A stretch of DNA of 64,000 bases from Luteibacter sp. UNC138MFCol5.1 (lineage in GTDB: Bacteria; Pseudomonadota; Gammaproteobacteria; Xanthomonadales; Rhodanobacteraceae): the NCBI RefSeq assembly GCF_900110505.1, contig NZ_FODZ01000002.1, forward strand, positions 424,113 to 488,112. Direction: 5' to 3'. Below are positions 3,006-53,235 of the stretch, piece after piece; position 1 is the stretch's first letter; each line of letters starts with the position of its first letter. The notes below the pieces were generated by a model. It saw only the letters and a program-made list of their open reading frames with translations. It did not search any database and was not told where the DNA came from. The position numbers and the translations under genes were made by a program.

Positions 3006-3013
3006 TCGAAGAA

Positions 3014-3041
3014 AGGCCCCGGAAACGGGGCCTTTTTTTTT
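3014..3041 (+). terminator. Rho-independent terminator of the helicase gene
   Basis: A 7-bp GC-rich stem (AGGCCCC / GGGGCCT) with a 6-base loop runs directly into eight or nine T residues, nine bases after the helicase stop. The converging YkgJ gene ends at 3046, so the hairpin could also slow transcription coming from the right, though the minus-strand T-run is weak. Confidence 0.92.
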
Positions 3042-3045
3042 GGAT

Positions 3046-3390
3046 TCAGGCCGCGAAGTCCGCCGGTGTCAGCGGTGGCATGCCATGGCGGATGCGCGCC
3101 TTGTCGCACTGCGGGCTGGGCTGGCCGTTTTCCCACGCGGGCTTGAGGTCGTGGCACGGCGAAGGCCGCACCTCGTACACGCCGCAATGCGCGGCGACGC
3201 CGACCTCGCCGACGAGCGAGCGGCAACGCGGCTCGTACGCGTTGGTGCCGTGCATGGCGACGCGATGCGGGTCGAGATGTTCGGTCAGCGCGGCCGGCGT
3301 GATGCCGCCGGCCAGATCCGTTTCCATCCAGTGGAAGGCGACGCGGTAGGTCGCGCAGCATGCGCCGCAGCGCAGGCAGGGGTGAGTCAT
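3046..3390 (-). CDS. YkgJ-family cysteine-cluster protein
   Basis: A 114-residue protein with the CxxCxxCC signature at its N-terminus (Cys5, 8, 11, 12) and further cysteines near 57, 69, 79 and 95. This is the pattern of the YkgJ/UPF0153 family, thought to bind a zinc or iron-sulfur cluster. The biochemical role of the family is not established. The ATG at 3390 lies four bases after the metallopeptidase stop, so the two genes probably share a transcript. No signal peptide or membrane segment is visible. Confidence 0.85.
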   Translation of the reverse strand: MTHPCLRCGACCATYRVAFHWMETDLAGGITPAALTEHLDPHRVAMHGTNAYEPRCRSLVGEVGVAAHCGVYEVRPSPCHDLKPAWENGQPSPQCDKARIRHGMPPLTPADFAA

Positions 3391-3394
3391 GGGT

Positions 3395-4261
3395 CTAGAT
3401 CGAGCCTGAAAAGGTGTTGCACTTGCCGACGTCGCCGGATTCGAAACCGGTGCGGAACCAGTGTACGCGCTGCGCCGAGGTGCCGTGGGTGAACGAGTCC
3501 GGTACCACCCTGCCCTGCGCCTGTTCCTGCAGCGTGTCGTCGCCGATCGCCGTGGCGGCGTTGAGCGCGGACTCGATGTCGCCGTCCTGCAGCCACTGCA
3601 GGCGCTGCTGCGATCGGTTCGCCCAGACACCCGCGAAACAGTCGGCCTGGAGCTCCTGGCGGACGGAGAGGCCGCTCGCACCTTCGAGGCGCGCTCCGCG
3701 ACGGCGGGCATCGTTGACCTTGTCGAACACGCCCGTGAGGTTCTGCACGTGGTGGCCGACCTCGTGGGCGATGACGTATGCCCGCGCGAAATCGCCCGCG
3801 GCGTGGAAGCGCGTCTGCATGTCCTGGAAGAAACCGAGGTCGAGGTAGACGCGGTGGTCGCCAGGGCAATAGAAGGGGCCGACGGCCGACGACGCCGAGC
3901 CGCATGCCGTGCGCACGCCGCCACGGAACAGCACCAGCTTCGGCTGCTCGTAGCTCTGCCCGTTCGCCGCGAAGATCTCGCCCCAGGTGTCCTCCGTCTC
4001 GCCGAGGACGGCACGGACGAAATCCACCTGCGGATCGTCGCCGGCGGCCTGCCGCGGGGCCTGCTGCGTCTGTGTGGGCGTTCCCGCGCCGGGGTCCCCC
4101 TGGCCGAGCAGGGCCGTGGGATCCTTGAAGAAGACGAGGCCGAGGATGGCCAGCACGATGATGCCGCCGATACCGAGCCCGCGGCCGCCGAACGACGGCC
4201 CGCCACCGCCCTCGCCCGCGTCCTCCACGTTGTCGCTTCTACGGCCTTTGTTCCACAGCAT
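3395..4261 (-). CDS. Neutral zinc metallopeptidase, YpfJ family, membrane anchored
   Basis: A 288-residue protein of the putative neutral zinc metallopeptidase family (YpfJ-like). It starts MLWNKGRRSDNVED, a hallmark N-terminus of the family. A Gly-rich stretch and one transmembrane segment (GIGGIIVLAILGLVFF, about residues 30-48) precede a periplasmic catalytic domain with HEVGHH at residues 166-171, a zinc-binding HExxH, followed by a conserved QELQADCFAG motif that supplies the third ligand region. The ATG at 4261 is chosen over upstream in-frame starts because GGAGGAA lies just before it and the family N-terminus begins there. The substrate is unknown. It is followed by the YkgJ gene with a four-base gap. 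Confidence 0.9.
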   Translation of the reverse strand: MLWNKGRRSDNVEDAGEGGGGPSFGGRGLGIGGIIVLAILGLVFFKDPTALLGQGDPGAGTPTQTQQAPRQAAGDDPQVDFVRAVLGETEDTWGEIFAANGQSYEQPKLVLFRGGVRTACGSASSAVGPFYCPGDHRVYLDLGFFQDMQTRFHAAGDFARAYVIAHEVGHHVQNLTGVFDKVNDARRRGARLEGASGLSVRQELQADCFAGVWANRSQQRLQWLQDGDIESALNAATAIGDDTLQEQAQGRVVPDSFTHGTSAQRVHWFRTGFESGDVGKCNTFSGSI

Positions 4262-4365
4262 GGCTGTTCCTCCCATGTAGGCGCCCTCTTTGGGACGCGC
4301 TCGGCATGATCGCACGGGCCGTTGCCGGTACACTCCGCGATCGATGACATCCCCCGGATCGTTTC

Positions 4366-4794
4366 ATGACCAGTCAGCTCCCCGCCGTCGTTACCCTGCT
4401 CACCCTGCTACTGATGTTCGCCACGGTCTGGATGGTAGGCCGTGCCCGTGAACGTTATGGCATCAAGGCGCCGTCCATCTCCGGGGACCCGGCGTTCGAG
4501 CGGGCTTGGCGGGTGCAGATGAATACGCTCGAGAACGCGGTGATGTTCATTCCCGCGCTCTGGCTGGCGGCCCAGTACGTCGATCCGCTGTGGGCGGGCA
4601 TCGCGGGGCTGGTCTGGCTGGCCGGTCGCGTGTGGTACGCCGTGGCCTACGTGCGCGACGCGAGCCGGCGCGGTCCCGGCTACATGGTCTCGATGCTGGC
4701 CTGGGCGGCGTTGATGCTGATGGCGGCCGGCGGCATGGGCATGGCCATCATGGAAAACGCCGCGACGCCGCCGGAAGACGCGGCGGCGCTCTGA
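4366..4794 (+). CDS. MAPEG-family membrane protein
   Basis: A 142-residue integral membrane protein with four predicted membrane segments. It contains the MAPEG-type core FERAWRVQMNTLENAVMFIP (the R-x-x-x-N-x-x-E pattern) followed by GRVWYAVAYVRD. Eukaryotic members are microsomal glutathione transferases and eicosanoid enzymes; the bacterial members are mostly uncharacterised, and glutathione-dependent detoxification is the usual guess. It is transcribed alone, divergent from the metallopeptidase and converging on the TerC-type gene with a gap of only six bases. Confidence 0.88.
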   Translation: MTSQLPAVVTLLTLLLMFATVWMVGRARERYGIKAPSISGDPAFERAWRVQMNTLENAVMFIPALWLAAQYVDPLWAGIAGLVWLAGRVWYAVAYVRDASRRGPGYMVSMLAWAALMLMAAGGMGMAIMENAATPPEDAAAL

Positions 4795-4800
4795 GTTCCG

Positions 4801-6378
4801 TCACTCGTCGTCGTTCGCCAGCGCCATCACGCGCACGCGCTGGATACGGGCGCCTTCCATCGCGGTGACCTCGAACTCCATGCCGTCGGTCTCGAAGCGG
4901 TCGCCGGCCGTGGGCAGGCGACCCAGCTGCTGCAGCACGAACCCTGCCAGCGTCGAGAAGTTACCGTCGGCCGCGCCCTGGAGGCGGTGACCAAGAAGGT
5001 GTTCCACGCGGCGCACGTCGAGGCTGGCGTCGAGCAGCCACGCGCCGTCCGGCTCGCTCACCGCCGAGGGATCGCCCTCGCGCGTCTCGTTCGGGAACTC
5101 GCCCGCGATCACTTCCAGCACGTCGGCCGGCGTGACGAGCCCGAGGATGCTGCCGTACTCGTCGACGACCAGCGCCATCTGCAACGGGGCGCGGCGGAAC
5201 TCGTCGATCAGGCGGAGCACGCTGAGCGACTCCAGCACCGTGACGGGCTTGCGGACCACGCCATCGGTGTCGAGCCGGCCGTGGTCGCCCAGGCTGGCGA
5301 GCAGGTCGCGCGAGGACACCACGCCCACCAGTTCGTCGAGGTCGCCGCGGGCGACCAGCATCCAGTGATGCGGCGATTCCCGGGCCTCGGCGAGGAGCGT
5401 CGCCGCGTCCTCGTCCGGATCCACCCAGACGATCTCCGTGCGCGGCGTCATGATCGAGCGCACGGGGCGCTGGGAGAGATCGAGCACGCCCTGCACCATT
5501 TCGAGTTCATCCTTGCCGAAGACCGACGTCTCGGCCACGGCCGGCACGGCCTCGCCCTTGCCCGTATCGCCTTCCTCGCCGTCCGGCTTGCCGCCGAGCA
5601 GGCGCAGCACCGCCTTCGCGGTGCGGTCGCGCATCACGCGGCCACCCACCAGCAGCGAGCGGCGGCGATTGCGCCGCATCGTCTGGTTGAAGACCTCGAT
5701 CATGATCGAGAAGCCGATCGCGGCGTAGAGGTAGCCCTTCGGGATATGGAACCCGAAGCCTTCGGCGATGAGGCTGAAGCCGATCATCAGCAGGAACGAG
5801 AGGCAGAGGATCACGACCGTCGGGCGGGCGTTGACGAAGGTCGTCAGCGGCTTGCTCGCGGTGATCATCAGCGCCATCGCGATCACCACGCCGATCATCA
5901 TGATGGAGAGGTGATCGACCATGCCGACGGCCGTGATCACCGAATCCAGCGAGAAGACGGCGTCGAGCACGACGATCTGCGCGACGACGAGCCAGAAGCT
6001 CGCGCGCCGGCCGGCCTTGCCGTCGTCGTGCTCCGAGGCCTCGAGGCGTTCGTGCAGTTCCAGCGTGGCCTTGAACAACAGGAACGCGCCGCCGACGATC
6101 AGGATGAGGTCGCGCCAGGAAAGCCCGAAGCCACGCCACTCGAAGAGCGGCTGCGTGAGCGTCACCAGCCAGGACATGGCGGCGAGCAGGCACAGGCGCA
6201 TCACCAGCGCGAGGCCGAGGCCCAGCAGGCGCGCGTGGTCGCGCTGGCGGGCATGGAGCTTGTCGGCGAGGATCGCGACGAAGACGAGATTGTCGATACC
6301 GAGCACGATCTCCAGCACGATCAGCGTGAGAAGACCTGCCCAGGCCGATGGGTCGGCTAACCAGTCGAATGCGAACAT
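4801..6378 (-). CDS. TerC-family membrane protein fused to CBS pair and CorC/HlyC transporter-associated domain
   Basis: A 525-residue protein with three parts. Residues about 1-240 form a TerC-type multi-pass membrane domain with the signature [12 protein letters not shown]. Residues about 300-420 form two CBS domains, beginning [15 protein letters not shown], that probably sense an adenine nucleotide. Residues about 435-520 form a CorC/HlyC-type domain with the typical [14 protein letters not shown] sequence. The architecture matches E. coli YegH/YoaE proteins, whose likely role is metal ion (Mn/Mg) export or homeostasis. This is family knowledge; nothing local identifies the metal. It is transcribed alone, facing away from the CPBP gene. 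Confidence 0.9.
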
Positions 6379-6499
6379 GGGTCGGCGCGTCGGGGCGCCC
6401 GTTTTCTTCCGTCAGGGGTGGACCACTATACAGGCCTCGCGTGACGGTCTGTGCCGGTCGTCGCGTTGCGGGTGGCGGGGGGCTTGGCTAGGCTGGCGC

Positions 6500-7276
6500 A
6501 TGGCTTACGACGACACCTCCGCTTTTCCACCGACCAACATCGCTCCCCCGCGCCGCGCTCCGGGCGTCATCGAGACGCTTCTGTGCATCGCCGCCTATTT
6601 CGCGATGCAGTTCGCCTTCGGCGGCCTGTTCGGCGGGCTCTCCATGCAGCTGACGCGCCTCTTCCCGGCGTCCGTGCCGGACGCGCCGGACCGCCTGATC
6701 GTGGTGGTCATCCTCACGCTGGCGTGCTCGGCCTCGCTCACCTACTGGCTGGTCCTGCGCCGCTGGGGACGGGCCCGGGCGCACGAGGCCGGTCCGGGCG
6801 GCCTCGGCTTCAACGCCCCGTCCGGCACGTACATCGCCGTCGGCACCGCGATGGGTATCGCCGCGCCCATCCTGGGCGGGCTGTTGACCCAGCTGCTGGC
6901 CGGCGGCCACGAGGTGAGCCAGGCCGTTTCCGACATCGCCGACAAGGCCCACATCGTCATGCGCGTCGCGCTGTTGCCCGTGGTGGTGCTCGTCGGCCCC
7001 GCCGTGGAGGAACTGCTGTTCCGCGGCGCCCTGCTCTCCCTCCTGCGCACGCGCCTGGGCGACGGCTGGGCCATGGCGATCTCGGCCGGCGTGTTCGGCG
7101 TCGTGCACCTGCCCGATCTGGGCTGGCTCTGGTACGCCGTGCCCAACCTGATCCTCGTGGGCGTGTTCTGCGCCTGGCTGCGGGTGCGCAGCGGCTCGAT
7201 CTGGCCGGCGTTCGTGACGCACGCGGCGAACAACGCCTTGGCCACCATCGCCTGGTTCACCGCCACGACGAGCTAG
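6500..7276 (+). CDS. CPBP-family intramembrane glutamic endopeptidase
   Basis: A 258-residue multi-pass membrane protein with the CPBP (CAAX protease / bacteriocin-processing, Abi) motifs: EELLFR with Glu170-Glu171 and Arg175, then FGVVHL with the second-motif His, and THAANNAL near the C-terminus. Eukaryotic relatives cleave prenylated CAAX proteins; bacterial members are linked to peptide processing or immunity, and the substrate here is unknown. The ATG at 6500 begins MAYDDTSAF. The gene is convergent with the methyltransferase gene and overlaps it by four bases. Confidence 0.9.
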   Translation: MAYDDTSAFPPTNIAPPRRAPGVIETLLCIAAYFAMQFAFGGLFGGLSMQLTRLFPASVPDAPDRLIVVVILTLACSASLTYWLVLRRWGRARAHEAGPGGLGFNAPSGTYIAVGTAMGIAAPILGGLLTQLLAGGHEVSQAVSDIADKAHIVMRVALLPVVVLVGPAVEELLFRGALLSLLRTRLGDGWAMAISAGVFGVVHLPDLGWLWYAVPNLILVGVFCAWLRVRSGSIWPAFVTHAANNALATIAWFTATTS

Positions 7277-7869
7277 AAGGTTTCCAGCGCCGCCACGTGC
7301 CTGGCCAGCCGGGGGCTCGCGTAGCACTGCGAGCCGACGGGGATCAGCCCCACCTCGGCGAAGGCCCGGCGATACCACGCGGCCGGGCGACCGATGAACC
7401 CGTCGCGATCGCCGCCGGGATCGTCCTCGCGGGTGTAGACCTCGAGGAACGCGAGCCCTTCGACCATCTCGCCGATGCCGATCAGCCCGTCGCGGATCTC
7501 CGCGGGCTTGAGGTAGTGCATGACGTCGGTGCAGACAATCAGGTCGAAGCGGGTGTCGAAGCGCAGGTGGGCCAGCTGGCCGAACCGCGCCAGGCCGATG
7601 TCGCGGGACCGGCCGTAGCGCGCCACCGCGTATTCGCTGGCCTCCAGGCCACGGTAGGCGATGCCGGGGCGCAGGCGCCGCAGGACGGCGCGCCAGGGGG
7701 CTTCGCCGCAGCCGACGTCCAGCACGTTGCGCACCGGACGGCCGAGATAGAACTCGGCCTGGCCGAGCACCATGGCCACCTTGCGCTGCAGCTCGGCGGG
7801 CGAGCGGACGGCGTGGTCCGCGCTGCGGTACCACTTGTCGAAATACGCCTGGTCGTAGGTCTTGGTCAT
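7273..7869 (-). CDS. SAM-dependent methyltransferase (class I)
   Basis: A 198-residue class I methyltransferase. The SAM-binding motif I is VLDVGCGEAPW; motif II-like FDLIVCTDVMHYL follows. The protein starts MTKTYDQAYFDKWYR, an opening often seen in this group, so the ATG at 7869 is preferred to the in-frame ATG at 7893. The substrate cannot be inferred: there is no pathway context, with a CPBP protease on one side and a small acidic protein divergent on the other. Confidence 0.85.
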   Translation of the reverse strand: MTKTYDQAYFDKWYRSADHAVRSPAELQRKVAMVLGQAEFYLGRPVRNVLDVGCGEAPWRAVLRRLRPGIAYRGLEASEYAVARYGRSRDIGLARFGQLAHLRFDTRFDLIVCTDVMHYLKPAEIRDGLIGIGEMVEGLAFLEVYTREDDPGGDRDGFIGRPAAWYRRAFAEVGLIPVGSQCYASPRLARHVAALETF

Positions 7870-7965
7870 GGGCGGTATCGGCAAAGCATGCATGGTAGCG
7901 GGGCGTACACTTCAGGCATACATGGCCCGCCGCAGCATCGAACGATATCGAACCAGGAGACCGTC

Positions 7966-8265
7966 ATGCCCCGTATCCAGCTCCGCATCACCGGCGACCG
8001 CGACGTCTTCGAGGACGTCCAGACCGCGATCCACGGCCTCGACCGGGTGGAGCGCGTCGAGGAGATCGACGATTTCATGAACGACTTCCGCGACGACTCG
8101 AGCTCGCAGAACCTGTCCGACGACATGAGCTCGCGGACGTACACGCTCGAAGTGGAAGTGCCCAACGAAAAGGTCGGCGAGCGCGTCCGCGAGGTCGCCG
8201 AGGAAACGGCGGGCACCCGCGAGGCCGCCATTGAGTTCGTCGACCCGGACGAGAACGAGATCTGA
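7966..8265 (+). CDS. Small acidic protein of unknown function
   Basis: A 99-residue, strongly acidic protein with a good ribosome-binding site (AGGAG) before the ATG at 7966. The N-terminus (PRIQLRITGDRDVFEDVQTA) and the C-terminal half look like alternating strand-helix-strand units, compatible with a small ferredoxin-like alpha/beta fold. The middle (DDFMNDFRDDSSSQNLSDDM) is acidic and probably flexible. No signal peptide, membrane segment or metal-binding motif is visible, and I do not recognise the family. It is a single gene, divergent from the methyltransferase and converging on the GH15 gene. Confidence 0.75.
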   Translation: MPRIQLRITGDRDVFEDVQTAIHGLDRVERVEEIDDFMNDFRDDSSSQNLSDDMSSRTYTLEVEVPNEKVGERVREVAEETAGTREAAIEFVDPDENEI

Positions 8266-8284
8266 TGCCGGGCGCGACGCGCGC

Positions 8285-10102
8285 CTAGGGTTGCCAGACC
8301 TGCCCCTGCGGGTTCGATAGCTGGCGATCGAGGTAGTACGCCGCGCTGATGAACGCCAGGTGCGTGAGGGCCTGCGGGAAATTGCCCAGCGGGTCCGACC
8401 GCAGGCTGAGTTCCTCGGAGAACAGGCCGAGGTGGTTCGCGTACACCACGCCACGCGCCATCACCTCGCGCGCCTCGTGCAGGCGTCCCGCCCGCGCCAG
8501 ACATTCCACGTACCAGAACGTGCAGGTCGTGAAGGCACCCTCCCCGCCGTCCAGCCCGTCCGCGTTGCGATAACGGAAGACCAGCCCGTCGTCCGTCAGG
8601 TGGTCCCGGATCGCGTCGAGCGTCTTCAGCCAGACTGGATCCGTCGCCGAGACGAAACGCACCAGCGGCATCATGAGCAGCGACGCGTCGAGATCCACGC
8701 CGCCACGCGTCTGCACGAAGTAGCCGTGCTCCGGATGGCGGAAGTTCGCCCAGATGTCTTCGGCGATCCGGTCGCGATCGGCGGCCCACTCGACGAGCGG
8801 CCCCGGTAGCGAACGCTTGATCGCCAGGCGCACCGCCCGGTCGAGCGCCACCCAACACATCAGGCGCGAGTGGAGGAAATGCCGCGACGCGTCGCGGATT
8901 TCCCAGATGCCTTCGTCGGGCTCGTTCCAGTGCGTGCGCACGTGGTCGACGAACCGCTTCACGTGCTCCCACTCCGCGTGGCTGATCGCGGTGCCGTACT
9001 TGTTGGAGAGGTACACGCTGTCCATCAGCTCGCCGTAGATGTCGAGCTGCGTCTGCGTGCGCGCGGCGTTGCCGATGCGCACGGGTCGCGATCCGGCATA
9101 GCCGGCGAGATGATCGAGCGTCGACTCCTCCTGCGCCTCCTCGCCGTCGAGCGCGTACATGATGCGCAGCGACGCTTCTTCGTCCAGGTCCATGATGCGT
9201 GCCGCCGTCCAGCGGCGGAAATGCTCGGCCTCCTCGATGTGACCGAGCCGCATGAAGGCGTAGACGGTGAACGACGCGTCGCGTATCCAGCTCGCGCGGT
9301 AATCCCAGTTGCGTTCCGCGCCCGTGGCCTCCGGCAGGCCGAACGTGGCCGCCGCCGCGATGGAGCCATGCTCGTGCGACGTCAGCAGCTTCAGCACCAG
9401 GGCCGAGCGCTCCACGCGTTCGCGCCAGCGGCCACGATAGGTGGACCGCCGGGTCCACGCGCGCCACGCGTCGGCGGTCGCCTCGAGTGCCGCCGCGCTC
9501 TCGGCGACGTCCGGCGGATCGATGGCCTCGTCGCAGAGCGCGAACCAGACCTCGTCGCCCGGCCGCAGCTCGAACTCCGCGGAGGCCTCGCCGTCGCCGG
9601 CGAGCAAGGGTACGCTCGCGCCAAGCCGCAGCGAATGCGCGCCGTCATGGAACACCACGGTATCGCCGTACGCCGCCGCTTCCGGCACGCAGCGCGCGTA
9701 ATCGAGCCGGGGGCGGCAGCAGGCCCGGATACGCACGGTACCGCGCTGCACGCGGATGCGGCGCATCAGGCTCCGCGGCACGCGGGCGTCCGCCTCGGGG
9801 TGCGGCATGAAATCGACGAGCTCCACGCTGCCCTCGTCGGCCATCCAGCGGGTCAGGAGGACGTTCGTCTCCGGGATGTAGAGCTGGATGTTCTTCGCGT
9901 CGCGCAATGCGGGCGAGATCGAGAACTCGCCGCCCTTGTCGGGATCCAGAAGCGACGCGAACACCGACGGGCTGTCCATGTGCGGCCAGCACATGAAGTC
10001 GATCGTGCCATCGAGCGCCACCAGCGCGGTGGTATCCAGGTTGCCGATGATGCCGTGATCGCCGATGGTCCGGCCCGGCATCGGATTGGCTCGGTGTGGC
10101 AC
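8285..10102 (-). CDS. Glycoside hydrolase family 15 protein (glucoamylase/trehalase-like)
   Basis: A 605-residue cytoplasmic GH15 protein. It opens with GDHGIIGNLDTTALV and IDFMCWPHMDSPSVF, the N-terminal signature of bacterial GH15 enzymes. The (alpha/alpha)6 barrel contains NWDYRASWIRDASFTVYAF, GIWEIR (general acid, Glu401) and LFSEEL (candidate base at Glu563/564). Family activities are glucoamylase, glucodextranase and acid trehalase; the sequence alone does not decide. The start is a GTG at 10102, chosen because AAGGAG lies six bases before it. No signal peptide is present, which favours an intracellular role in storage or stress sugar turnover. No otsA/otsB genes are nearby. Confidence 0.92.
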   Translation of the reverse strand: MPHRANPMPGRTIGDHGIIGNLDTTALVALDGTIDFMCWPHMDSPSVFASLLDPDKGGEFSISPALRDAKNIQLYIPETNVLLTRWMADEGSVELVDFMPHPEADARVPRSLMRRIRVQRGTVRIRACCRPRLDYARCVPEAAAYGDTVVFHDGAHSLRLGASVPLLAGDGEASAEFELRPGDEVWFALCDEAIDPPDVAESAAALEATADAWRAWTRRSTYRGRWRERVERSALVLKLLTSHEHGSIAAAATFGLPEATGAERNWDYRASWIRDASFTVYAFMRLGHIEEAEHFRRWTAARIMDLDEEASLRIMYALDGEEAQEESTLDHLAGYAGSRPVRIGNAARTQTQLDIYGELMDSVYLSNKYGTAISHAEWEHVKRFVDHVRTHWNEPDEGIWEIRDASRHFLHSRLMCWVALDRAVRLAIKRSLPGPLVEWAADRDRIAEDIWANFRHPEHGYFVQTRGGVDLDASLLMMPLVRFVSATDPVWLKTLDAIRDHLTDDGLVFRYRNADGLDGGEGAFTTCTFWYVECLARAGRLHEAREVMARGVVYANHLGLFSEELSLRSDPLGNFPQALTHLAFISAAYYLDRQLSNPQGQVWQP

Positions 10103-44745: not shown

Positions 44746-44774
44746 TTGACGGCCGCCCCACGCTACGATGGGTA
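44746..44774 (+). promoter_or_regulatory. Candidate promoter of isovaleryl-CoA dehydrogenase gene
   Basis: TTGACG at 44746-44751 is a near-consensus -35; 17 bases later TGGGTA (44769-44774) is only a weak -10. Its position, about 33 bases before the start codon, is sensible. Evidence is limited. Confidence 0.3.
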
Positions 44775-44806
44775 GCTTTTTCCACGCTTACCCCGGAGTT
44801 GCACCC

Positions 44807-45964
44807 ATGCGTCCGTTCTCCCTCGGTGAAGACCTCGACCTCCTGCGCGAAAGCGTGCACGCCTTCGCGGAGAAGGAGATCGCGCCGCGCGCCGACCGCA
44901 TCGACCGCGAGAACGTGTTTCCGGAAGACCTCTGGCGCAAGTTCGGCGACATGGGCCTTCTTGGCGTGACCATTCCCGAAGAGTTCGGCGGTTCCGGTCT
45001 CGGCTTCCTGGCCCACATGATCGCGATGGAGGAGATCTCGCGCGCGTCCGCGTCCGTGGGTCTTTCCTATGGCGCGCACTCGAATCTGTGCGTGCAGAAC
45101 ATCTACCACAACGGCAACGACGCGCAGCGGCGCAAATACCTGCCGAAACTCGCCAGCGGCGAGTGGGTGGGCGCGCTGGCGATGAGCGAGCCGGGCGCCG
45201 GGTCGGACGTGGTCGGCTCGATGAGCTGCCACGCGGAACTCGTCGGCGACGTGTGGGTGGCGAACGGCAGCAAGATGTGGATCACGAACGGCCCCGACGC
45301 CGACGTGCTGCTCGTGTACATGCGCACGGCGCCGCGTCCCGCGGGCAGCCGCTGCATGACCGCCTTCATCGTCGAGAAAGGCATGAAGGGCTTCTCCACC
45401 GCCCAGAAGCTCGACAAGCTCGGCATGCGCGGTTCGAACACCTGCGAACTGGTGTTCGACAACTGCGAGATTCCCGCCGAGAACATCGTCGGGGAGGTCA
45501 ACGAGGGCGTGCGCGTGCTTATGGGCGGCCTCGACACCGAGCGCCTCGTGCTCTCCGGCGGCCCGATCGGCATCATGCAGTCGGCCATGGATCTGGTGCT
45601 GCCCTACGTGCGCGAGCGCAAGCAGTTCAACGCGCCGATCGGCACGTTCGGCATGATGCAGGCGAAGGTCGCGGACATGTACACCGCGCTGCAATCGTCG
45701 CGTGGCTTCGCTTACATGGTGGCCCAGCAGTTCGACAACGGCGTGAAGTCGCGCATCGATCCCGCCGCCTGCCTGCTCAACGCGTCGACCAACGCGGTGC
45801 AGGTCGCGCTCGAGGCCATCCAGGCGCTCGGCGGCAACGGCTACATCAATGAATTCCCGGCCGGCCGGCTGCTCCGCGACGCGAAGCTCTACGAGATCGG
45901 CGCCGGCACCAACGAGATCCGCCGCATGCTGATCGGCCGCGAGTTGTTCCACGGCAAGTCCTGA
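44807..45964 (+). CDS. ivd: Isovaleryl-CoA dehydrogenase
   Basis: A 385-residue FAD-dependent acyl-CoA dehydrogenase that oxidises isovaleryl-CoA to 3-methylcrotonyl-CoA in leucine breakdown. [25 protein letters not shown] and [11 protein letters not shown] mark the family. The catalytic base is in the isovaleryl-type position: Glu245 in [12 protein letters not shown]. The C-terminal motif is [12 protein letters not shown], lacking the Glu that serves as base in most other acyl-CoA dehydrogenases. The ATG at 44807 follows CCGGAG. The downstream leucine genes resume at 52 kb after two opposite-strand autotransporters. Confidence 0.93.
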
Positions 45965-46033: not shown

Positions 46034-48886
46034 TTACCACTTCATCCGGAACGTCGCGCTCGCCGAGCGCGCGTGATCGCGATCCGCGAAGCGCTGGTCC
46101 ACGTCGAACCCGATCTGCGTCCGGTCGCTCACGTCCCATCCGAGCGTCATGCCCGCCGTGCCGGCGCGACGCGACAGACCGATGCCGTCCACCGGTGCCC
46201 ACTGGGCGATGCCGGTGTAGCGCGCGGAGAACACTTCGCCCTTCGTCGCGAACGCGTTCTGCCAGCCGAGTTTCGCATCGAGGTGCAGCTTGCCCATCGA
46301 CGTGAACCACGACGCACCGGCGCGCAGGCCGAAGCCGGCCTGCCAGCGCGAGGTCGTCTGCCCGTTCGCGCTGAGGCCGAAGCCCTGGCCGCCCGTTTCC
46401 TCGAAGGCGTCGCGACGGATGCTGGCGTGCTGCACGTTGGCGAACGGCGTCAGCGAGAACGCGCCTGCATCCGTACGATAACCGACCTCGCCGTAAGCGA
46501 CGTTGTAGTGCCCGGTGTTGTCGCCGCCGGCGAACGCGGCCTGGTCGCCGAAGCGCAGCAGGCGTTGCGTGTTCCCGCGGAAGTTGCCGAAGCCGAGCCG
46601 GCCGACGCCGTACCAGTTGGCGCCACGCGAGCCGGCGTAGAGCATGCTTTCGGTCGAACGGTTGCGCTGGCGATCGAAGTTGCCCGACAGCTGCCCGTTG
46701 CTCTGCATCTGCGCGAACGCGACGCCCGCGAAACCGTTGCTGCCGATGCGGATGTCGTTACCCGCCAGGCCACCGTTGAGCTGGAAGCCGACGTTGCCGA
46801 AGCCCGATCGGCTGAGGCCGCCCTGCCCGTCCAGCGACTGCATCCACGCGCCGCCGGCACCCTGGCTGTCCAGGTGGCTCATCAGCGCGTCGTTACCGGC
46901 CTCGATGCCGGCGAGGGTCACCGCCGTGCTCGCGGCGTAGAGCTGGCCCGAGAGCGATTCGAGCGATGCGCGCGCCGTCGCCGTGTCGCGCGACTGCTGG
47001 ATGCCGCCGGCCGCCACGAGCGTGCCCTGCGCCACCGCGCCCGCCGCGGAAGGCGACGTGAGCACCTGGTCGAGCTTTTCGAACGCGCCATCGAGACGCT
47101 TCGCCGACGAAACCGCCGCGGCCGAATCGGCCATGGTCGTCGTCGCGACGTTGATGACCTTGATCTGCGACGTGTCGACCCAGACTTCGCTCGCGCCGTA
47201 CTGCAGCGTCGTCGCCAGGAAGATGTTCGGCTCCGTCGTGAAGCTGGTGAAGCTGCCGTGCACCGCGCTCGCCGTCAGCACCTGCTGGTGCATCGTCGGC
47301 ACGTAGCCGTCCGTCACCCCGGCGACGTGGAACTCGCCCGCGAGCGTCGCGATACCGTGCACGACGAGTGGCGCGCCGAGTGTCTGCACCAGCGTGCCGG
47401 TGCTGGTCTGGGTGAAATCGCCGTCGATGCGCGCGCCCGCCGCGGTCGTCTGCACGCGGCCGCTGTTGGACACGGTGCCACCGATGTTGCGGCGCGCGAT
47501 CAGCGACCCACCTTGTTTCACCGTGGCGCTACCCGGGAAATCCCAGAGCGCGTCGAGCGTCGCAGCCGCGTTGATCGTCGACGTGCCCGTGAACGTGTTG
47601 TTGTTGCTGGCGAGCACCAGCTTGCCGGTTTTCGCCCCGTTGCCGGCGCTGTTGCCGTTGACGAGGAATCCGCCCGTTCCCGCGATGTCGTTATAGAACG
47701 TGACATCGCTCTCGCCGAGATCGACGGCCATCTGGCCCCAGTCGAGACGGCCAGGGCCACGGATGGCCTTGCCCACGTTGAGCCGGCCGTAGCCGAAGAC
47801 GGGATCGACGCCCGGATCGCCGAGGTCGTCCGCCGTACCAAGGAGGATCTCGCGCACCGTCGACATGGAGAACGTGGGGAACACGCCCTTGACCACGGCG
47901 GCCGCGCCGGACACCTGCGGCGCGGCGAACGACGTGCCCGACGCCGTCACGTAGGCCGGCTTATCCGCCGTCGAAGTGGCCGCGAGGGCCACGACATCGC
48001 CAGGGGCGGCGAGGCAGTAGTTCATCGCCTTGCCGCAGTGGTTCGAGTACGAAGCCAGCTGGTCGGGCTTGTTGCCATCCAGCGCCACCACCGCAAGCCA
48101 TCCCTGCTCGAGCGCCGGCACGCGGAACGGCAGGGCCGCGAGGTCGGAGGGGTCAGCCTTGCTCTTGTTGCCGGCGGCGAACACATAAAGCGCACCGCCG
48201 GCCGCGGCACCGTAGGCGTTGGCGAAGCTGTTCGTGGTGTCGGTGGAACCGGCATCCCAGTAGAGCCCGTCCCACGAATTGTTGATGATCTTCGCACCCG
48301 CCGCGATCACGTCGCTGTTGATCGAGCCCAACGGGTTGGCGGAGGTGACGACATTACCGTTGCCCGAACCGTCGTCGGTCGGCGCCTTGTCGGCGATGAT
48401 GCGGGCGGACACGATCTTCGCACCGGTCGCGATGCCGCCGGTGAACGTGCCCGACGCCGCGCCCGCGGCGAGTTCGGCGACGACGGTGCCGTGACCCACC
48501 GCGTCCGGCACCGAAACATTGTTCGCCACGGGATCGACGTAGGTCAGGTTCGCCGCGACGCGACCGGCGAGCGCGGGGTTGGCGCCGTTCACGCCGGAAT
48601 CGACGATACCGATGACGACATCGGCGCCGGTCGCGCCCGCCGCGTGCGCGGCCGCGCTGTTCGTGGCCGTGATCTGCACGTCCACCGGGAAGGCGTAGGT
48701 AGGGGCGGCCGGGGTCGACGGGGTGGTCGTGGCCGGCGGGGCGGCCGGTGTCGTCGGCGCGACGACGGCCGGGACGTTGTAGCTGTTCTTGCTACCACCA
48801 CCGCCGCCGCCACAGGCGGTCAGGCCCACACTCACGGCAATGGCCAGCGCGAGGTCGCGCTGACGCAGCTGAATGATCGTATTCAC
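46034..48886 (-). CDS. Subtilase (S8) autotransporter lipoprotein, catalytically intact
   Basis: A 950-residue surface protease. The signal peptide ends in a lipobox (VGLTAC, Cys25) followed by six Gly. The S8 domain (about 75-400) has the full triad: Asp96 in GIVDSGVNG, His132 in GHGTVVAE and Ser319 in SGTSFAAPQVSG. The oxyanion Asn240 is in FAAGNK. A short beta-strand stalk (about 400-640) leads to a C-terminal autotransporter barrel (about 680-950) ending FRMKW. The layout is that of lipidated NalP/AspA-type proteases, which process other surface proteins. The GTG at 48886 is chosen because the signal peptide starts there and AGGGGA precedes it. A paralogue follows upstream at 49060. Confidence 0.92.
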   Translation of the reverse strand: MNTIIQLRQRDLALAIAVSVGLTACGGGGGGSKNSYNVPAVVAPTTPAAPPATTTPSTPAAPTYAFPVDVQITATNSAAAHAAGATGADVVIGIVDSGVNGANPALAGRVAANLTYVDPVANNVSVPDAVGHGTVVAELAAGAASGTFTGGIATGAKIVSARIIADKAPTDDGSGNGNVVTSANPLGSINSDVIAAGAKIINNSWDGLYWDAGSTDTTNSFANAYGAAAGGALYVFAAGNKSKADPSDLAALPFRVPALEQGWLAVVALDGNKPDQLASYSNHCGKAMNYCLAAPGDVVALAATSTADKPAYVTASGTSFAAPQVSGAAAVVKGVFPTFSMSTVREILLGTADDLGDPGVDPVFGYGRLNVGKAIRGPGRLDWGQMAVDLGESDVTFYNDIAGTGGFLVNGNSAGNGAKTGKLVLASNNNTFTGTSTINAAATLDALWDFPGSATVKQGGSLIARRNIGGTVSNSGRVQTTAAGARIDGDFTQTSTGTLVQTLGAPLVVHGIATLAGEFHVAGVTDGYVPTMHQQVLTASAVHGSFTSFTTEPNIFLATTLQYGASEVWVDTSQIKVINVATTTMADSAAAVSSAKRLDGAFEKLDQVLTSPSAAGAVAQGTLVAAGGIQQSRDTATARASLESLSGQLYAASTAVTLAGIEAGNDALMSHLDSQGAGGAWMQSLDGQGGLSRSGFGNVGFQLNGGLAGNDIRIGSNGFAGVAFAQMQSNGQLSGNFDRQRNRSTESMLYAGSRGANWYGVGRLGFGNFRGNTQRLLRFGDQAAFAGGDNTGHYNVAYGEVGYRTDAGAFSLTPFANVQHASIRRDAFEETGGQGFGLSANGQTTSRWQAGFGLRAGASWFTSMGKLHLDAKLGWQNAFATKGEVFSARYTGIAQWAPVDGIGLSRRAGTAGMTLGWDVSDRTQIGFDVDQRFADRDHARSASATFRMKW

Positions 48887-49059
48887 GTTGTCCCCTGGTC
48901 TTGACGTCAATGTCGTGCACCGCGATCCGTGGTGCCCCTGGCGCGGATAGTGCCACATTTTTTTAAGAAAAAACTCAACGATCATGTCACGTTTTCGCGG
49001 TCCTGCCGTTTTTTCTCGATAGGCCCTTTCCAGCGGGCGGCAGCGCGCGGCAACGCCCG

Positions 49060-51873
49060 CTACCACGCCTTCCGATAGCTCAATCTGCCGGACCGCGACC
49101 TGTCCCGGTCAGCGAAGCGCTGATCGAGGTCCAGCGCCAGCTGGCTGCGTTCATCCATATCCCAGGCCAGGGCCATGCCAGCGGTGGTGGCGTGGCGCGA
49201 CAGGCCGATGCCCTCGACCGGCGCCCATTCGGCCAGCCCCGTATAGCGCGCCGAAAACACCTCGCCACGGGTGACGAACGCGCCCTGCCACGCGAGCTTG
49301 CCAACGAGCCGCAGGCGCCCCGCCGATGTCAGCCACGTGGCGCCTCCGCGCACACCGAATCCCGCCTGCCAGCGCGAGGTCGTCTGGCCGACGCTGCTGA
49401 GGCCGAAGCCGGCACCGCCGGACTCCTCGAACCCGGACCGGCGGATGGACGCGAACTGGACGCTGGCGAATGGCGTCACGGAGAACGCACCGGCGTGCGT
49501 GCGATAGCCGGTTTCGCCATAGACGACGTTGTAGCGTCCTGTGCCTTCGCTGCCCGCGAAGGCTGCCTGTTCGCCGAAACGGAGCAAGCGCCGCATGTCG
49601 CCCCGGAAGCTGCCGTAGCCGAACCGCCCGACGCCGTACCAGCGGTCGCCACGCGATCCGGCATAGAACATGCCTTCGGTCGCGCGGTTGCGCTGACGGT
49701 CCACGTTGTCCGACAGCTGGCCGCTGCTGCGCATCTGCGCGATCGCGACACCGGCGAAACCCATCTGCCCGAGCCGTACGTCGGCGCCAACGAGGCTGCC
49801 GCCGACACTGAAGCCGACGCTGCCGAAGCCGCCGCGGCTGAGGCTGCCCTGCGTCCCGAGCGACTGGGTCCACGCACCCGTGGCTTCCTGGGCATCGAGG
49901 TGCTCGATGAGCGCGTCGTTGCCCGCATCGATACCGGCCAGCGTGACCGCCGTACCCGCCGCGTAAAGCTGGCCCGAGAGCGACTCGAGCGAACGTCGCA
50001 CCACCTGCGTACTGCCCGACTGCTGGACGTTGCCCGCCGCGACCAGCATCGAAAGGTTCTGCATCGACGGGTCGATCGTCCCGTCCGCGAGGCCGCGATC
50101 GATCCGTGCGAACGCGCCGTCGAGCCGGCGCGCCGACGACTGCGCCGCTACCGATTGCGGCATCGTTGTGGCGGCGACGTTCGCCACGCTGAGGGTACGC
50201 GTGTCGAGCCACGCTTCCGTCGGCGTGTACTGCAGCGTCGCCGAGAGCAGCACGCCGGTACCCAGCGTCATGGTCTGGAACGCACCGTCGATGCCACCGG
50301 CCTGCACCACGGTCTGGTGCGAGGTGGGCACGTAGCCGGGCACCGCTCCGGCGATGGTGAGATCGCCGGTCAGGTGCGCGGTGCCGGCGACGATCAGGGG
50401 CGCGCCGAGCTTCACGGTGAGTTTCCCGAAGTCGGGCGTCGGCCAGAAATCCTTACCAACGTGGACCGTCGTGTCGCCGGTCACCAGCTCATGATCGATA
50501 AAGAGGTTCCCGCCGATGTCGCCATGCGTGACGACCCTTCCGCCCGCATAGAGGTCGGCGGGAAAACCGTGGAGACTTTCGACGTTCCCGTAGACGCTGG
50601 TCCGGCCTTTATAGGTATTGGTGCCGGCGAGGATGATCGTCGTGTCGGCATCGGTCTGCAGGCGCAAGGCACCCTTGCCACCGATATCGTTGCGGAAGGT
50701 GACCGAGTGCCTGCCGGTCGCCGTCAGGTCGAGGAGCTCGTCGTCGATGCTCGCCGGTCCGCGAATGGCCCGCGCCACGTTCAGGCGACCATTGCCGAAT
50801 ACCGGATCGATGCCGGGCGCGCCCAGATCGTCGGCGGTAGACAGCAGCACCTGCCGCAGCGAGTCGTAATTCATCTCGGGAAACGCCTCCAGCACGAGCG
50901 CGGCGGCTGCGCCCACCTGCGCGGCGGCGATACCCGTTCCGCTACGGACTTCGTACACAGGACGGTCTTTCGTCGACGTCGCGGCGAGCGTGATCACGCT
51001 GCCAGGCGCGGCGAGGCAATAGTTCGCGGTCGCGCCGCACTGATTCGAATCCGCCGCCAGCTTCGTCGGGTCCGTGCCGTCGAGCGCCACGACCGTCGTC
51101 CAACGCCTCCAGACACCGGTGTTCCGATAGGCCGGTAGCGTCGGAAGCGCCGCGACGTTGTTCGGATCCAGCTTTCCCGCGTCGCCTGCGGCGAACAGAT
51201 ATAGCGCGTTGCCACCGTAGAGCGAGGAATACCATTTCTGCGTCAGGCTCGTATCGGATGTATCCCAGTCGGCTCCGCCCCAGGAATGAACGTCGACGCG
51301 CGAATACAGGTTGCCCGACGAACCGTTCTTTACGTTCGTCAGCATCTCGGGAGTCACCGTCGACGTGGGCAGGCCGACGGGAGCCTTGTCCGGCACGATA
51401 CGCGCGGAGCGGATGCGTGAGCCCGGCGCGATACCACCGCCGAAATCGCCCAGCGCGGATCCCGCGATGATCTGGGCGACCGCGGTGCCGTGGCCCGAGA
51501 CGTCGCCCTTGCTCGTGTCGTTGGTCGACGGGTCCACGATCGACGTCTGATAGGCGATCTTCCCCGTGAGCGCGGGGTTGGTCGCATCGACGCCGGTGTC
51601 GTAGATCGTGACGTCGAAACCGGTACCGGTGAAGCCGGCGGCATGGGCCGCGTCGGCGTGGGTCAGCGAAAGGTGCGCGTTCAGGCGTGGATCGACGGTG
51701 GGCGTGGCCGGCGGCGTGACGGGCGGCGGCGTCGTGGGCGGAGCTACGACAACCCCGGAGCCTCCGCCTCCTTTCGTCCCACCACCACCGCCACCACCGC
51801 ATGCGGTCAGTACCATGCACACGCACACCGCCAGCGCAAGCTCGCGCCTGCGCGGAAAAGCCACGTACTTCAT
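49060..51873 (-). CDS. Subtilase-like autotransporter lipoprotein with lost active site (pseudoprotease)
   Basis: A 937-residue paralogue of the neighbouring subtilase autotransporter with the same layout: lipobox MVLTAC (Cys25), poly-Gly, Pro-rich spacer, S8 domain, stalk and barrel ending YRKAW. Asp92 (IYDTGVDA) and His128 (GHGTAVAQ) are kept. The catalytic Ser is replaced by Gly314 in SGTGIAAAQVG (codon at 50932-50934, GGT), and the oxyanion Asn by Asp231 in FAAGDAG. The reading frame is otherwise intact and the barrel well conserved, so it is expressed as a probable non-proteolytic protein rather than a decayed pseudogene. The ATG at 51873 follows AAGGGGAT. It is divergent from the thiolase gene. 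Confidence 0.9.
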   Translation of the reverse strand: MKYVAFPRRRELALAVCVCMVLTACGGGGGGGTKGGGGSGVVVAPPTTPPPVTPPATPTVDPRLNAHLSLTHADAAHAAGFTGTGFDVTIYDTGVDATNPALTGKIAYQTSIVDPSTNDTSKGDVSGHGTAVAQIIAGSALGDFGGGIAPGSRIRSARIVPDKAPVGLPTSTVTPEMLTNVKNGSSGNLYSRVDVHSWGGADWDTSDTSLTQKWYSSLYGGNALYLFAAGDAGKLDPNNVAALPTLPAYRNTGVWRRWTTVVALDGTDPTKLAADSNQCGATANYCLAAPGSVITLAATSTKDRPVYEVRSGTGIAAAQVGAAAALVLEAFPEMNYDSLRQVLLSTADDLGAPGIDPVFGNGRLNVARAIRGPASIDDELLDLTATGRHSVTFRNDIGGKGALRLQTDADTTIILAGTNTYKGRTSVYGNVESLHGFPADLYAGGRVVTHGDIGGNLFIDHELVTGDTTVHVGKDFWPTPDFGKLTVKLGAPLIVAGTAHLTGDLTIAGAVPGYVPTSHQTVVQAGGIDGAFQTMTLGTGVLLSATLQYTPTEAWLDTRTLSVANVAATTMPQSVAAQSSARRLDGAFARIDRGLADGTIDPSMQNLSMLVAAGNVQQSGSTQVVRRSLESLSGQLYAAGTAVTLAGIDAGNDALIEHLDAQEATGAWTQSLGTQGSLSRGGFGSVGFSVGGSLVGADVRLGQMGFAGVAIAQMRSSGQLSDNVDRQRNRATEGMFYAGSRGDRWYGVGRFGYGSFRGDMRRLLRFGEQAAFAGSEGTGRYNVVYGETGYRTHAGAFSVTPFASVQFASIRRSGFEESGGAGFGLSSVGQTTSRWQAGFGVRGGATWLTSAGRLRLVGKLAWQGAFVTRGEVFSARYTGLAEWAPVEGIGLSRHATTAGMALAWDMDERSQLALDLDQRFADRDRSRSGRLSYRKAW

Positions 51874-52059
51874 CCGGATCCCCTTGTCGACGTCATTGTC
51901 GGGCCGGCGCCCCCGCGCGGCCTCCCCTCGCAAGATCTTGGCACAGGCGTGAGGATCCCCGCCATGCCGCGGCGCAGATTGCCCCGCCACCGGCCGGCTT
52001 GCGATACTCGAACGGTTTTCCGCCCGATCGGGCGGCCTTCCGAGCATCACGGAGTCACC

Positions 52060-53235
52060 ATGTCCGACATCGTCATCGCGGGTGCCAAGCGCACCGCCAT
52101 CGGTTCCTTCCTTGGCCAGTTCACGGGCGTCCCCACCCCCAAGCTGGGCTCCATCGCGATCAAGGCCGCGCTCGAACAGTCCGGCATCGCGCCCGCCGAC
52201 GTCAGCGAAGTGATCATGGGCTGCGTGCTGCCGGCCAACCTCGGCCAGGCGCCCGCCCGCCAGGCCTCGCTCGAAGCCGGTCTGCCGACCGCCACCGGAT
52301 GCACCACCATCAACAAGGTGTGCGGATCCGGCATGAAGGCCCTGATGCTCGGCCACGACCTGATCAAGGCCGGTTCGGCCAGCATCGTCGTCGCCGGCGG
52401 CATGGAGTCGATGACCAACGCGCCGCACATGATCGCGGCGCGCACGGGCATTCGCTACGGCGACGGCCAGCTCGTCGATCACATGGCGTGGGACGGACTC
52501 ACCAATCCGTACGACGGCAAGGCCATGGGCATCTTCGGCGAGCAGTGCGCCGACAAGTACCACTTCACCCGCGAAGAACAGGACGCCTACGCGATCGCGT
52601 CGGTCGAGCGCGCGCAGGCGGCGCAGAAGGCGAACGCCTTCGCCAACGAGATCGTTCCCGTGACCGTGCAGGGCCGCAAGGGCGCGCAGGACTTCGCCGA
52701 GGACGAGCAGCCCGGCCGCTCCGACGTCGCCAAGATTCCCACGCTGCGCGCCGCCTTCCGCAAGGAAAACGGCACGATCACCGCGGCGAGCTCGTCGTCG
52801 ATCTCCGATGGTGCCGCGGCGCTCGTCCTGCTTTCCGCGGACGACGCGAAGGCGCGGGGCGTCACCCCCCTCGCCCGCATCGTCGCCCACGCCACGCACT
52901 CGCAGGAGCCGGAGTGGTTCACCACCGCGCCGGTCGGCGCCATTTCGAAGGTGCTCGACAAGGCCGGCTGGAAGGCTGGCGACGTGGATCTGTTCGAGAT
53001 CAACGAAGCGTTCGCCGTGGTGCCGATGGCCGTCATGCGCGAACTCGGCGTGCCGCACGACAAGGTCAACGTGCACGGCGGCGCCTGCGCGCTGGGTCAT
53101 CCGATCGGCGCCAGCGGCGCCCGGATCGTGGTGACCCTTCTCAATGCGTTGACGGCACGTGGGGCAAAAAGGGGTGTCGCCGCGCTGTGCATCGGTGGCG
53201 GCGAGGCAACGGCGATCGCCATCGAATTGGTGTGA
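52060..53235 (+). CDS. Acetyl-CoA C-acetyltransferase (thiolase)
   Basis: A 391-residue thiolase. The acyl-accepting Cys88 is in NKVCGSGMKAL, His347 in GGACALGHPIGASGA and Cys377 in LCIGGGEATA. It catalyses the interconversion of acetyl-CoA and acetoacetyl-CoA, and in this setting would complete breakdown of leucine-derived acetoacetate. The ATG at 52060 is preceded by GGAGTCACC. The autotransporter pair separates it from isovaleryl-CoA dehydrogenase. Confidence 0.94.
   Translation: MSDIVIAGAKRTAIGSFLGQFTGVPTPKLGSIAIKAALEQSGIAPADVSEVIMGCVLPANLGQAPARQASLEAGLPTATGCTTINKVCGSGMKALMLGHDLIKAGSASIVVAGGMESMTNAPHMIAARTGIRYGDGQLVDHMAWDGLTNPYDGKAMGIFGEQCADKYHFTREEQDAYAIASVERAQAAQKANAFANEIVPVTVQGRKGAQDFAEDEQPGRSDVAKIPTLRAAFRKENGTITAASSSSISDGAAALVLLSADDAKARGVTPLARIVAHATHSQEPEWFTTAPVGAISKVLDKAGWKAGDVDLFEINEAFAVVPMAVMRELGVPHDKVNVHGGACALGHPIGASGARIVVTLLNALTARGAKRGVAALCIGGGEATAIAIELV

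What the first reader, a model, noticed from the sequence alone, without database searches (positions are those of the whole stretch)
46034..51873. Paired lipidated subtilase autotransporters: one active, one with a destroyed active site
The upstream protein keeps Asp92 and His128, but the catalytic Ser is Gly314 and the oxyanion Asn is Asp231, while the downstream protein keeps Asp96, His132, Asn240 and Ser319. Both frames are intact over about 940 residues, with matching lipobox, stalk and barrel. Loss of exactly the nucleophile and the oxyanion residue in an otherwise conserved protein suggests selection for a non-catalytic role: a decoy, a regulator, a substrate-binding partner or a chaperone of the active protease.
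Basis: partly seen in the sequence, partly recalled or inferred. Interest (0 to 1): 0.75.

Follow-up and report, generated by a model that had tools for sequence, protein, structure and literature searches.

The report
Dead twin of a surface protease
A bacterium carries, beside a normal surface-anchored protease gene, a twin whose cutting machinery is lost but whose protein sequence has been kept by selection, which suggests the twin is used for something other than cutting.

Summary
In a Luteibacter genome two lipidated subtilase autotransporters lie in tandem on the minus strand. The downstream one (950 aa) has Asp96/His132/Asn240/Ser319; the upstream one (937 aa) keeps Asp92/His128 but has Asp231 and Gly314.

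The locus is conserved in the family, usually single and active (144 of 149 sequences examined have D-H-N-S). The four dead copies are all extra copies in genomes that keep an intact-triad copy, and need at least two inactivations. All 12 tandem loci examined in another genus (g13) have two intact sites.

The window's dead lineage is shared with one other species (Luteibacter sp. UNCMF331Sha3.1). Between the two, dN/dS is about 0.06 (0.08 in the comparable part of the dead domain), so it was under purifying selection after Ser became Gly. In that second species it is now broken by a 322-base deletion with frame change, so the role is dispensable.

Best reading: a selected, non-catalytic, surface-displayed pseudoprotease, more likely a repurposed binding or adhesion module than a substrate decoy. 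New variant of a known kind; the molecular role is inferred.

The parts
49060..51873 (-). upstream gene: lipidated subtilase autotransporter with a dead active site (937 aa; D92, H128, D231, G314)
50788..51627 (-). degenerate Peptidase_S8 domain of the upstream gene (aa 83-362)
   Evidence: Pfam PF00082, 100 bits
50932..50934 (-). codon for Gly314, at the place of the catalytic Ser
   Evidence: family alignment; codon read
51181..51183 (-). codon for Asp231, at the place of the oxyanion Asn
   Evidence: family alignment; codon read
51373..51378 (-). junction Val166-Gly167, where the DDGSG segment of the active family is missing
49126..49875 (-). autotransporter beta-barrel of the upstream gene (aa 667-916)
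   Evidence: Pfam PF03797, 113.6 bits
46034..48886 (-). downstream gene: active-type lipidated subtilase autotransporter (950 aa; D96, H132, N240, S319)
47786..48628 (-). intact Peptidase_S8 domain of the downstream gene (aa 87-367)
   Evidence: Pfam PF00082, 148.1 bits
46097..46849 (-). autotransporter beta-barrel of the downstream gene (aa 680-930)
   Evidence: Pfam PF03797, 124.3 bits
51874..51945 (-). leader of the upstream gene: -10-like TGTGCCAAGATCT, GC-rich predicted hairpin, GACAATGACGTC, GGGG before ATG
48887..48957 (-). leader of the downstream gene: TGTGGCACTATCC, predicted hairpin, GACATTGACGTC, GGGG before GTG
52060..53232 (+). thiolase, conserved flanking gene
44768..45964 (+). 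acyl-CoA dehydrogenase, conserved flanking gene

Best explanation
The upstream protein is a selected pseudoprotease. It is a lipid-anchored autotransporter that still displays a subtilase-fold passenger on the cell surface but cannot cut peptides. Shown by sequence: nucleophile and oxyanion Asn lost, one substrate-strand segment lost, fold predicted intact, purifying selection after the loss, a leader of the same type as the active gene's. Inferred: because it cannot cut itself free as NalP-type proteases can (recalled), it stays anchored and acts through binding, as a surface binding or adhesion module or as a partner of the active protease beside it. Loss in the second species shows the role is useful in some lineages and dispensable in others. 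The selection part is well supported; the exact role is not.
For: Ser-to-Gly, Asn-Asn to Val-His and Pro to Ala are shared with the orthologue, so inactivation predates the split of the two species. After that, dN/dS is 0.062 (2dlnL against 1 = 614.8) over 821 codons; subtilase part 0.079 (169 codons, 2dlnL 104.6), stalk 0.045, barrel 0.067. Codon-position differences are 0.161/0.133/0.453, a coding-gene pattern that does not rest on saturated dS. The comparable dead subtilase part is 80% identical between the two species, within the 76-87% of four active pairs compared. AlphaFold2 gives the dead protein mean pLDDT 82.0 against 84.7 for the active one, and both find the autotransporter Ssp (8e7f) first in the PDB. 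A leader element found in 24 of 26 genus genes and 0 of 116 other family genes is kept by the dead gene in both species. The dead lineage does not look like a young duplicate: grouping it with the active copies of its own species clade is rejected (p-AU 0.0048).
Against: The orthologue in Luteibacter sp. UNCMF331Sha3.1 is broken by a 322-nt deletion. The lineage is known from only 2 of 23 genus genomes. Synonymous sites are near saturation (dS 2.26), so the dN/dS value is rough. The dead barrel (75%) is less conserved than in four active pairs (87-92%), a sign of some relaxation. About 107 residues around the site cannot be compared because the orthologue lacks them. Nothing here shows expression, surface display or a partner. 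No precedent turned up in the paper listings seen.
Confidence: 0.55

Rival explanations
1. Slow decay of a redundant duplicate: the upstream copy lost activity and is on its way out, still looking intact in the window's species.
For: The orthologue carries a deletion with frame change; 16 of 69 near-invariant positions changed; long stem branch, 0.61-0.67; barrel less conserved than in four active pairs.
Against: dN/dS about 0.06 after inactivation, with no stop and, apart from the one large deletion, only two internal gaps of 3 nt; leader kept.
Confidence: 0.2
2. Substrate decoy or substrate-capturing partner: the dead passenger binds the peptides the active one cuts and regulates or feeds it.
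For: Tandem with the active gene and the same leader type; no terminator-like site on the minus strand between the two genes; SWGG, recalled as one wall of the substrate cleft, is kept in the window's copy.
Against: The DDGSG segment, recalled as the other wall, is missing; in the two dead copies of G011 the SWGG strand is altered or gone.
Confidence: 0.15
3. Silent reservoir of passenger sequence that recombines into the active gene.
For: Passenger and barrel trees disagree for the window's active gene; in G011 the dead tandem copy's barrel is 96% identical to the active one's while the passengers differ.
Against: The window's dead passenger is at most 50% identical to any active one in the tree, so it has not been a recent donor; a reservoir need not keep low dN/dS.
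Confidence: 0.06
4. Still an enzyme, by another nucleophile or another chemistry.
For: Asp92 and His128 are kept.
Against: No Ser, Thr or Cys stands at the nucleophile column; Ser311, three residues before, lies at a column that varies in active members; the oxyanion Asn and a substrate-strand segment are lost too.
Confidence: 0.04

Closest known systems
Subtilisin-like autotransporters (NalP, SphB1, EprS, Ssp, fusolisin; 'Group 15' in PMC9289746)
   Same: S8 domain, beta-helix stalk, PF03797 barrel; NalP and SphB1 are described as lipidated (passages of PMC9289746); Ssp 8e7f and fusolisin 8axg are the first PDB hits of both proteins.
   Different: The upstream protein lacks the nucleophile, the oxyanion Asn and a substrate-strand segment. 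The review's main text does not hold the word 'inactive'.
CspC and CspA pseudoproteases with active CspB (Clostridioides difficile)
   Same: Subtilase-fold pseudoproteases beside one active paralogue; CspC has Gly485 at the Ser position, Thr170 at the His position and Asp105 kept; other bacterial families keep Csp proteins with intact triads (passages of PMC6636752).
   Different: Spore proteins with prodomain and jelly-roll domain, not autotransporters; His is lost in CspC and kept here; CspC's proposed role is germinant sensing.
Catalytically inactive serine protease homologues in a 2008 prokaryote survey (PMC2605481)
   Same: 42 of 966 serine proteases in that survey lacked essential residues (passages).
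   Different: Whether any was a subtilase autotransporter was not seen in the passages read.

Membership tests
Subtilisin-like (type Va) autotransporter | N-terminal signal with lipobox (lipidated subgroup) | tested here: met
   LTAC at Cys25 in both, followed by poly-Gly; lipidation itself not testable
Subtilisin-like (type Va) autotransporter | Peptidase_S8 domain | tested here: met
   100.0 and 148.1 bits, cut-off 21.8
Subtilisin-like (type Va) autotransporter | C-terminal Autotransporter barrel | tested here: met
   113.6 and 124.3 bits, cut-off 26
Subtilisin-like (type Va) autotransporter | Asp-His-Ser triad and oxyanion Asn, downstream protein | tested here: met
   D96 H132 N240 S319
Subtilisin-like (type Va) autotransporter | Asp-His-Ser triad and oxyanion Asn, upstream protein | tested here: not met
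   D92 H128 D231 G314: by architecture a member, by function not a protease
Pseudoprotease (inactive homologue kept by selection) | Essential residues lost | tested here: met
Pseudoprotease (inactive homologue kept by selection) | Purifying selection after the loss | tested here: met
   dN/dS 0.062 between two species that share Ser-to-Gly; one of them later broken
Pseudoprotease (inactive homologue kept by selection) | Demonstrated non-catalytic function | not testable with these tools
   needs experiment
Csp pseudoproteases | Prodomain plus jelly-roll insertion, spore protein | tested here: not met
   Pfam finds only S8 and Autotransporter; Csp domains as read in passages of PMC6636752

The most novel reading that the evidence does not exclude
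Extra copies of a subtilase autotransporter in Luteibacter have turned at least twice into surface-displayed pseudoproteases. They lose the nucleophile, the His or the oxyanion Asn, the Pro after the nucleophile motif and part of the substrate cleft, and gain a non-catalytic surface role beside the active copy: a first class of autotransporter pseudoproteases.
Probability: 0.35. Interest if true: 0.65.

Novelty: new variant of a known kind. Interest (0 to 1): 0.45.

Why it matters
Inactive relatives of enzymes often become regulators or binders, but no case among autotransporter proteases turned up in the paper listings seen here. In these related bacteria an active copy, a dead copy kept by selection, a later-broken dead copy, and tandem pairs with both copies intact all exist. 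This offers a natural series for asking why a cell would display a protease that cannot cut.

Tried and rejected
Random decay as the whole story: rejected for the window's lineage by dN/dS, though decay is real in the second species. A young duplication inside the window's own species clade: rejected by AU tests, p 0.0048, 0.0328 and 0.0053 for three groupings; part of that signal may come from passenger exchange among active genes. One single origin for all dead copies: rejected for WIN_up + L040_2 + L062_1 together (p 0.0013), not for WIN_up + L062_1 (p 0.056) nor L040_2 + L062_1 (p 0.136), hence 'at least two'. Comparing rates of dead and active passengers between the same two species (subtilase 80% dead against 62% active) was set aside, because the active passengers are not orthologous. 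Region-wise dS of several pairs is saturated or did not converge and was not used. The first genome-contig scan, with the dead protein alone, found no relative. The sigma-70 consensus scan found no promoter (0 found, 0.4 expected) and no terminator-like site on the minus strand between the two genes, so the '-10-like' element rests on conservation only.

Limits and dropped rows: the survey kept sequences over 600 aa and left out L041_2 by name; the fragments L039_2 and L041_1 fell below that length. Not all of the 161 matching genomes were fetched, its match list was cut, and it scored only three candidates per genome, so further copies may exist outside the genus. In one search the three distant paralogues L090-L092, L061_1 and L039_1 were left out of the active and dead rows. 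Papers: searches gave listings only (20 of 26 papers shown, 12 of 2,959; the one paper, on host cell exit, and the one were not opened); passages were seen of PMC9289746, PMC2605481 and PMC6636752. The library lacks most subscription journals, so absence from print is not shown.

Full report
WHAT IS THERE. The window (G000, contig 6) holds two tandem minus-strand genes between a thiolase and an acyl-CoA dehydrogenase on the plus strand. Each encodes a lipobox signal (LTAC, Cys25), a Gly/Pro linker, a Peptidase_S8 domain, a stalk and an autotransporter barrel. The downstream protein has the full D96/H132/N240/S319 set; the upstream one has D92/H128 but D231 and G314. Nine S8 matches were found in this genome; of the eight whose loci were held, a simple motif check found the upstream gene to be the only one without a GTS motif.

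WHERE IT BELONGS. Named records of the nearest relatives are Luteibacter, with Dyella, Rhodanobacter, Frateuria, Fulvimonas and others further out; the window's own record is not named. All 23 genomes held for the genus have a match to the dead protein at E up to 1e-50, and 161 of 233 genomes of the family have one to the active protein. Of the 55 loci compared for neighbours (the window included), 50 have the thiolase and 43 the acyl-CoA dehydrogenase nearby; 4 of the 5 without thiolase are unlinked or distant paralogues and one is cut by a contig end. Most hold a single copy.

HOW UNUSUAL THE DEAD SITE IS. Of 149 family sequences over 600 aa from the loci I fetched, 144 have D-H-N-S at the four positions. 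One (L061_1) is cut by a contig end and keeps N and S. The four others are dead: the window's upstream copy (D-H-D-G); its orthologue in Luteibacter sp. UNCMF331Sha3.1 (G012, L039; Gly at Ser, the Asn region deleted); the downstream copy of a tandem pair in G011 (L040_2, Ser to Ala); and an unlinked third copy in G011 (L062_1, His to Arg and Asn to Ser, Ser kept). These three genomes each also hold a copy with an intact triad at the locus. In another genus of the family (g13; several of its records are named Dyella), 12 of 12 tandem loci examined have two intact sites, so duplication alone does not lead to inactivation.

HOW WIDE THE LOSS IS. Of 69 subtilase positions at least 97% conserved among 144 active members, 16 differ in the window's copy, 13 in L040_2 and 24 in L062_1; the leave-one-out median for active members is 0, and values of 11 to 18 occur only in three distant paralogues. 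Pro323, after the nucleophile motif, is P in 141 of 141 active members (distant paralogues left out) and A in the three full-length dead copies; the fourth reads GTGIAAAQ. Gly173 of the DDGSG segment is kept in 138 of 141 and in none of the three. In the window's copy that segment is a gap, and its orthologue reads the same way. It aligns with ADGSGQYS of subtilisin, which I recall as the strand that holds P2-P4 of the substrate. SWGG, recalled as the opposite wall, is kept in the window's copy but altered in L040_2 and missing in L062_1.

HISTORY. The flanking genes make the window's species and G012 sisters (SH-aLRT 99.8, bootstrap 100). Their dead copies form a 100/100 clade on a long stem, with shared Ser-to-Gly, Asn-Asn to Val-His and Pro-to-Ala changes, so inactivation predates the split. 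Holding the dead pair inside its own species clade is rejected (p-AU 0.0048), which points to an old paralogue lost elsewhere or one gained from an unsampled relative. At least two separate inactivations are needed.

SELECTION. Between the two dead orthologues dN/dS is 0.062 over 821 codons (dN 0.139, dS 2.26); 0.079 in the comparable subtilase part (169 codons), 0.045 in the stalk and 0.067 in the barrel; a value of 1 is rejected by 2dlnL 614.8, 104.6, 214.4 and 234.4. Differences by codon position are 0.161/0.133/0.453. Six active pairs give 0.034 to 0.086 overall; one of these has passengers that are not orthologous, and one is the C-terminal part of the frameshifted L041 gene. The dead subtilase part (80% identical) lies within the 76-87% of four active pairs, while the dead barrel (75%) is less conserved than theirs (87-92%). 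The pairs are not matched for species distance.

DECAY IN ONE SPECIES. In G012 the orthologue has a 322-nt deletion after codon 201 with a change of frame; its only other internal gaps against the window's gene are two of 3 nt, so the break looks recent. Only one assembly was seen, so an assembly error cannot be excluded.

EXPRESSION SIGNS. Genus members share a leader: a -10-like TGTGGCANNATC, a GC-rich predicted hairpin and GACATTGAYGTC just before the ribosome site. With one edit allowed the last element is found in 24 of 26 genus genes, 0 of 116 other family genes (two of these, L090 and L092, are distant paralogues from genus genomes) and 1 of 2,840 mononucleotide shuffles. Both dead orthologues keep it; the two misses in the genus are the dead L040_2 and the active L060_1. 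The strict pattern followed by GGGG occurs once in the whole genome, before the active gene. No terminator-like site lies on the minus strand between the genes, so read-through is also possible.

STRUCTURE. AlphaFold2 predicts the same architecture for both (mean pLDDT 82.0 and 84.7; pTM 0.60 and 0.64), and the first PDB hit of both is Ssp (8e7f), then fusolisin (8axg). In the dead model confidence falls over aa 161-190 (block means 52-61), where the DDGSG segment was lost.

MECHANISM. Shown: essential residues are gone, the sequence was kept by selection after the loss, and the display architecture is intact. Inferred: the passenger stays attached, since NalP-type self-release (recalled) needs catalysis, and works by binding. 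The loss of one substrate wall makes a classic decoy less likely. The nearest working precedent is CspC/CspA with CspB in C. difficile, where CspC also carries Gly at the Ser position (passages of PMC6636752). That is a likeness of principle, not of family.

VERDICT. A real and fairly unusual pseudoprotease of the autotransporter class, narrow in distribution (2 of 23 genus genomes for this lineage) and without a known role.

Noticed in passing
window 48887-48957 and 51874-51945; genus loci: Conserved leader (-10-like element, predicted hairpin, GACATTGAYGTC) before the subtilase autotransporter genes: 24 of 26 genus genes, 0 of 116 other family genes. Function unknown; covariation of the hairpin not tested.
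   Followed up: partly
window 46034-48886; L039, L040: Passenger and barrel of the active gene have different histories: the window's barrel groups with G012, its passenger with G002/G004/G022; in G011 the two tandem barrels are 96% identical while subtilase and stalk are 52% and 44%. Suggests passenger exchange or barrel gene conversion.
   Followed up: partly
L041 (G018) 5496-8305: The locus copy in this genome is split into two frames close to the catalytic serine: a broken copy or a sequencing error.
   Followed up: no
L044 (G019) 2360-4563: Between the autotransporter and the acyl-CoA dehydrogenase lies an extra pair: a peptidoglycan-binding protein with an X-Tfes XVIPCD domain (PF20410, 93.8 bits) and a DUF4189 protein; looks like an antibacterial type IV secretion effector with a partner (recalled reading).
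   Followed up: partly
L042, L093-L101, L104, L105 (genus g13): Twelve tandem pairs of the same autotransporter in another genus of the family, with intact active sites in both copies of each.
   Followed up: partly
L062 (G011) 4978-7899: Unlinked third copy with His to Arg, Asn to Ser and the NNSWGG strand missing, while Ser is kept.
   Followed up: partly
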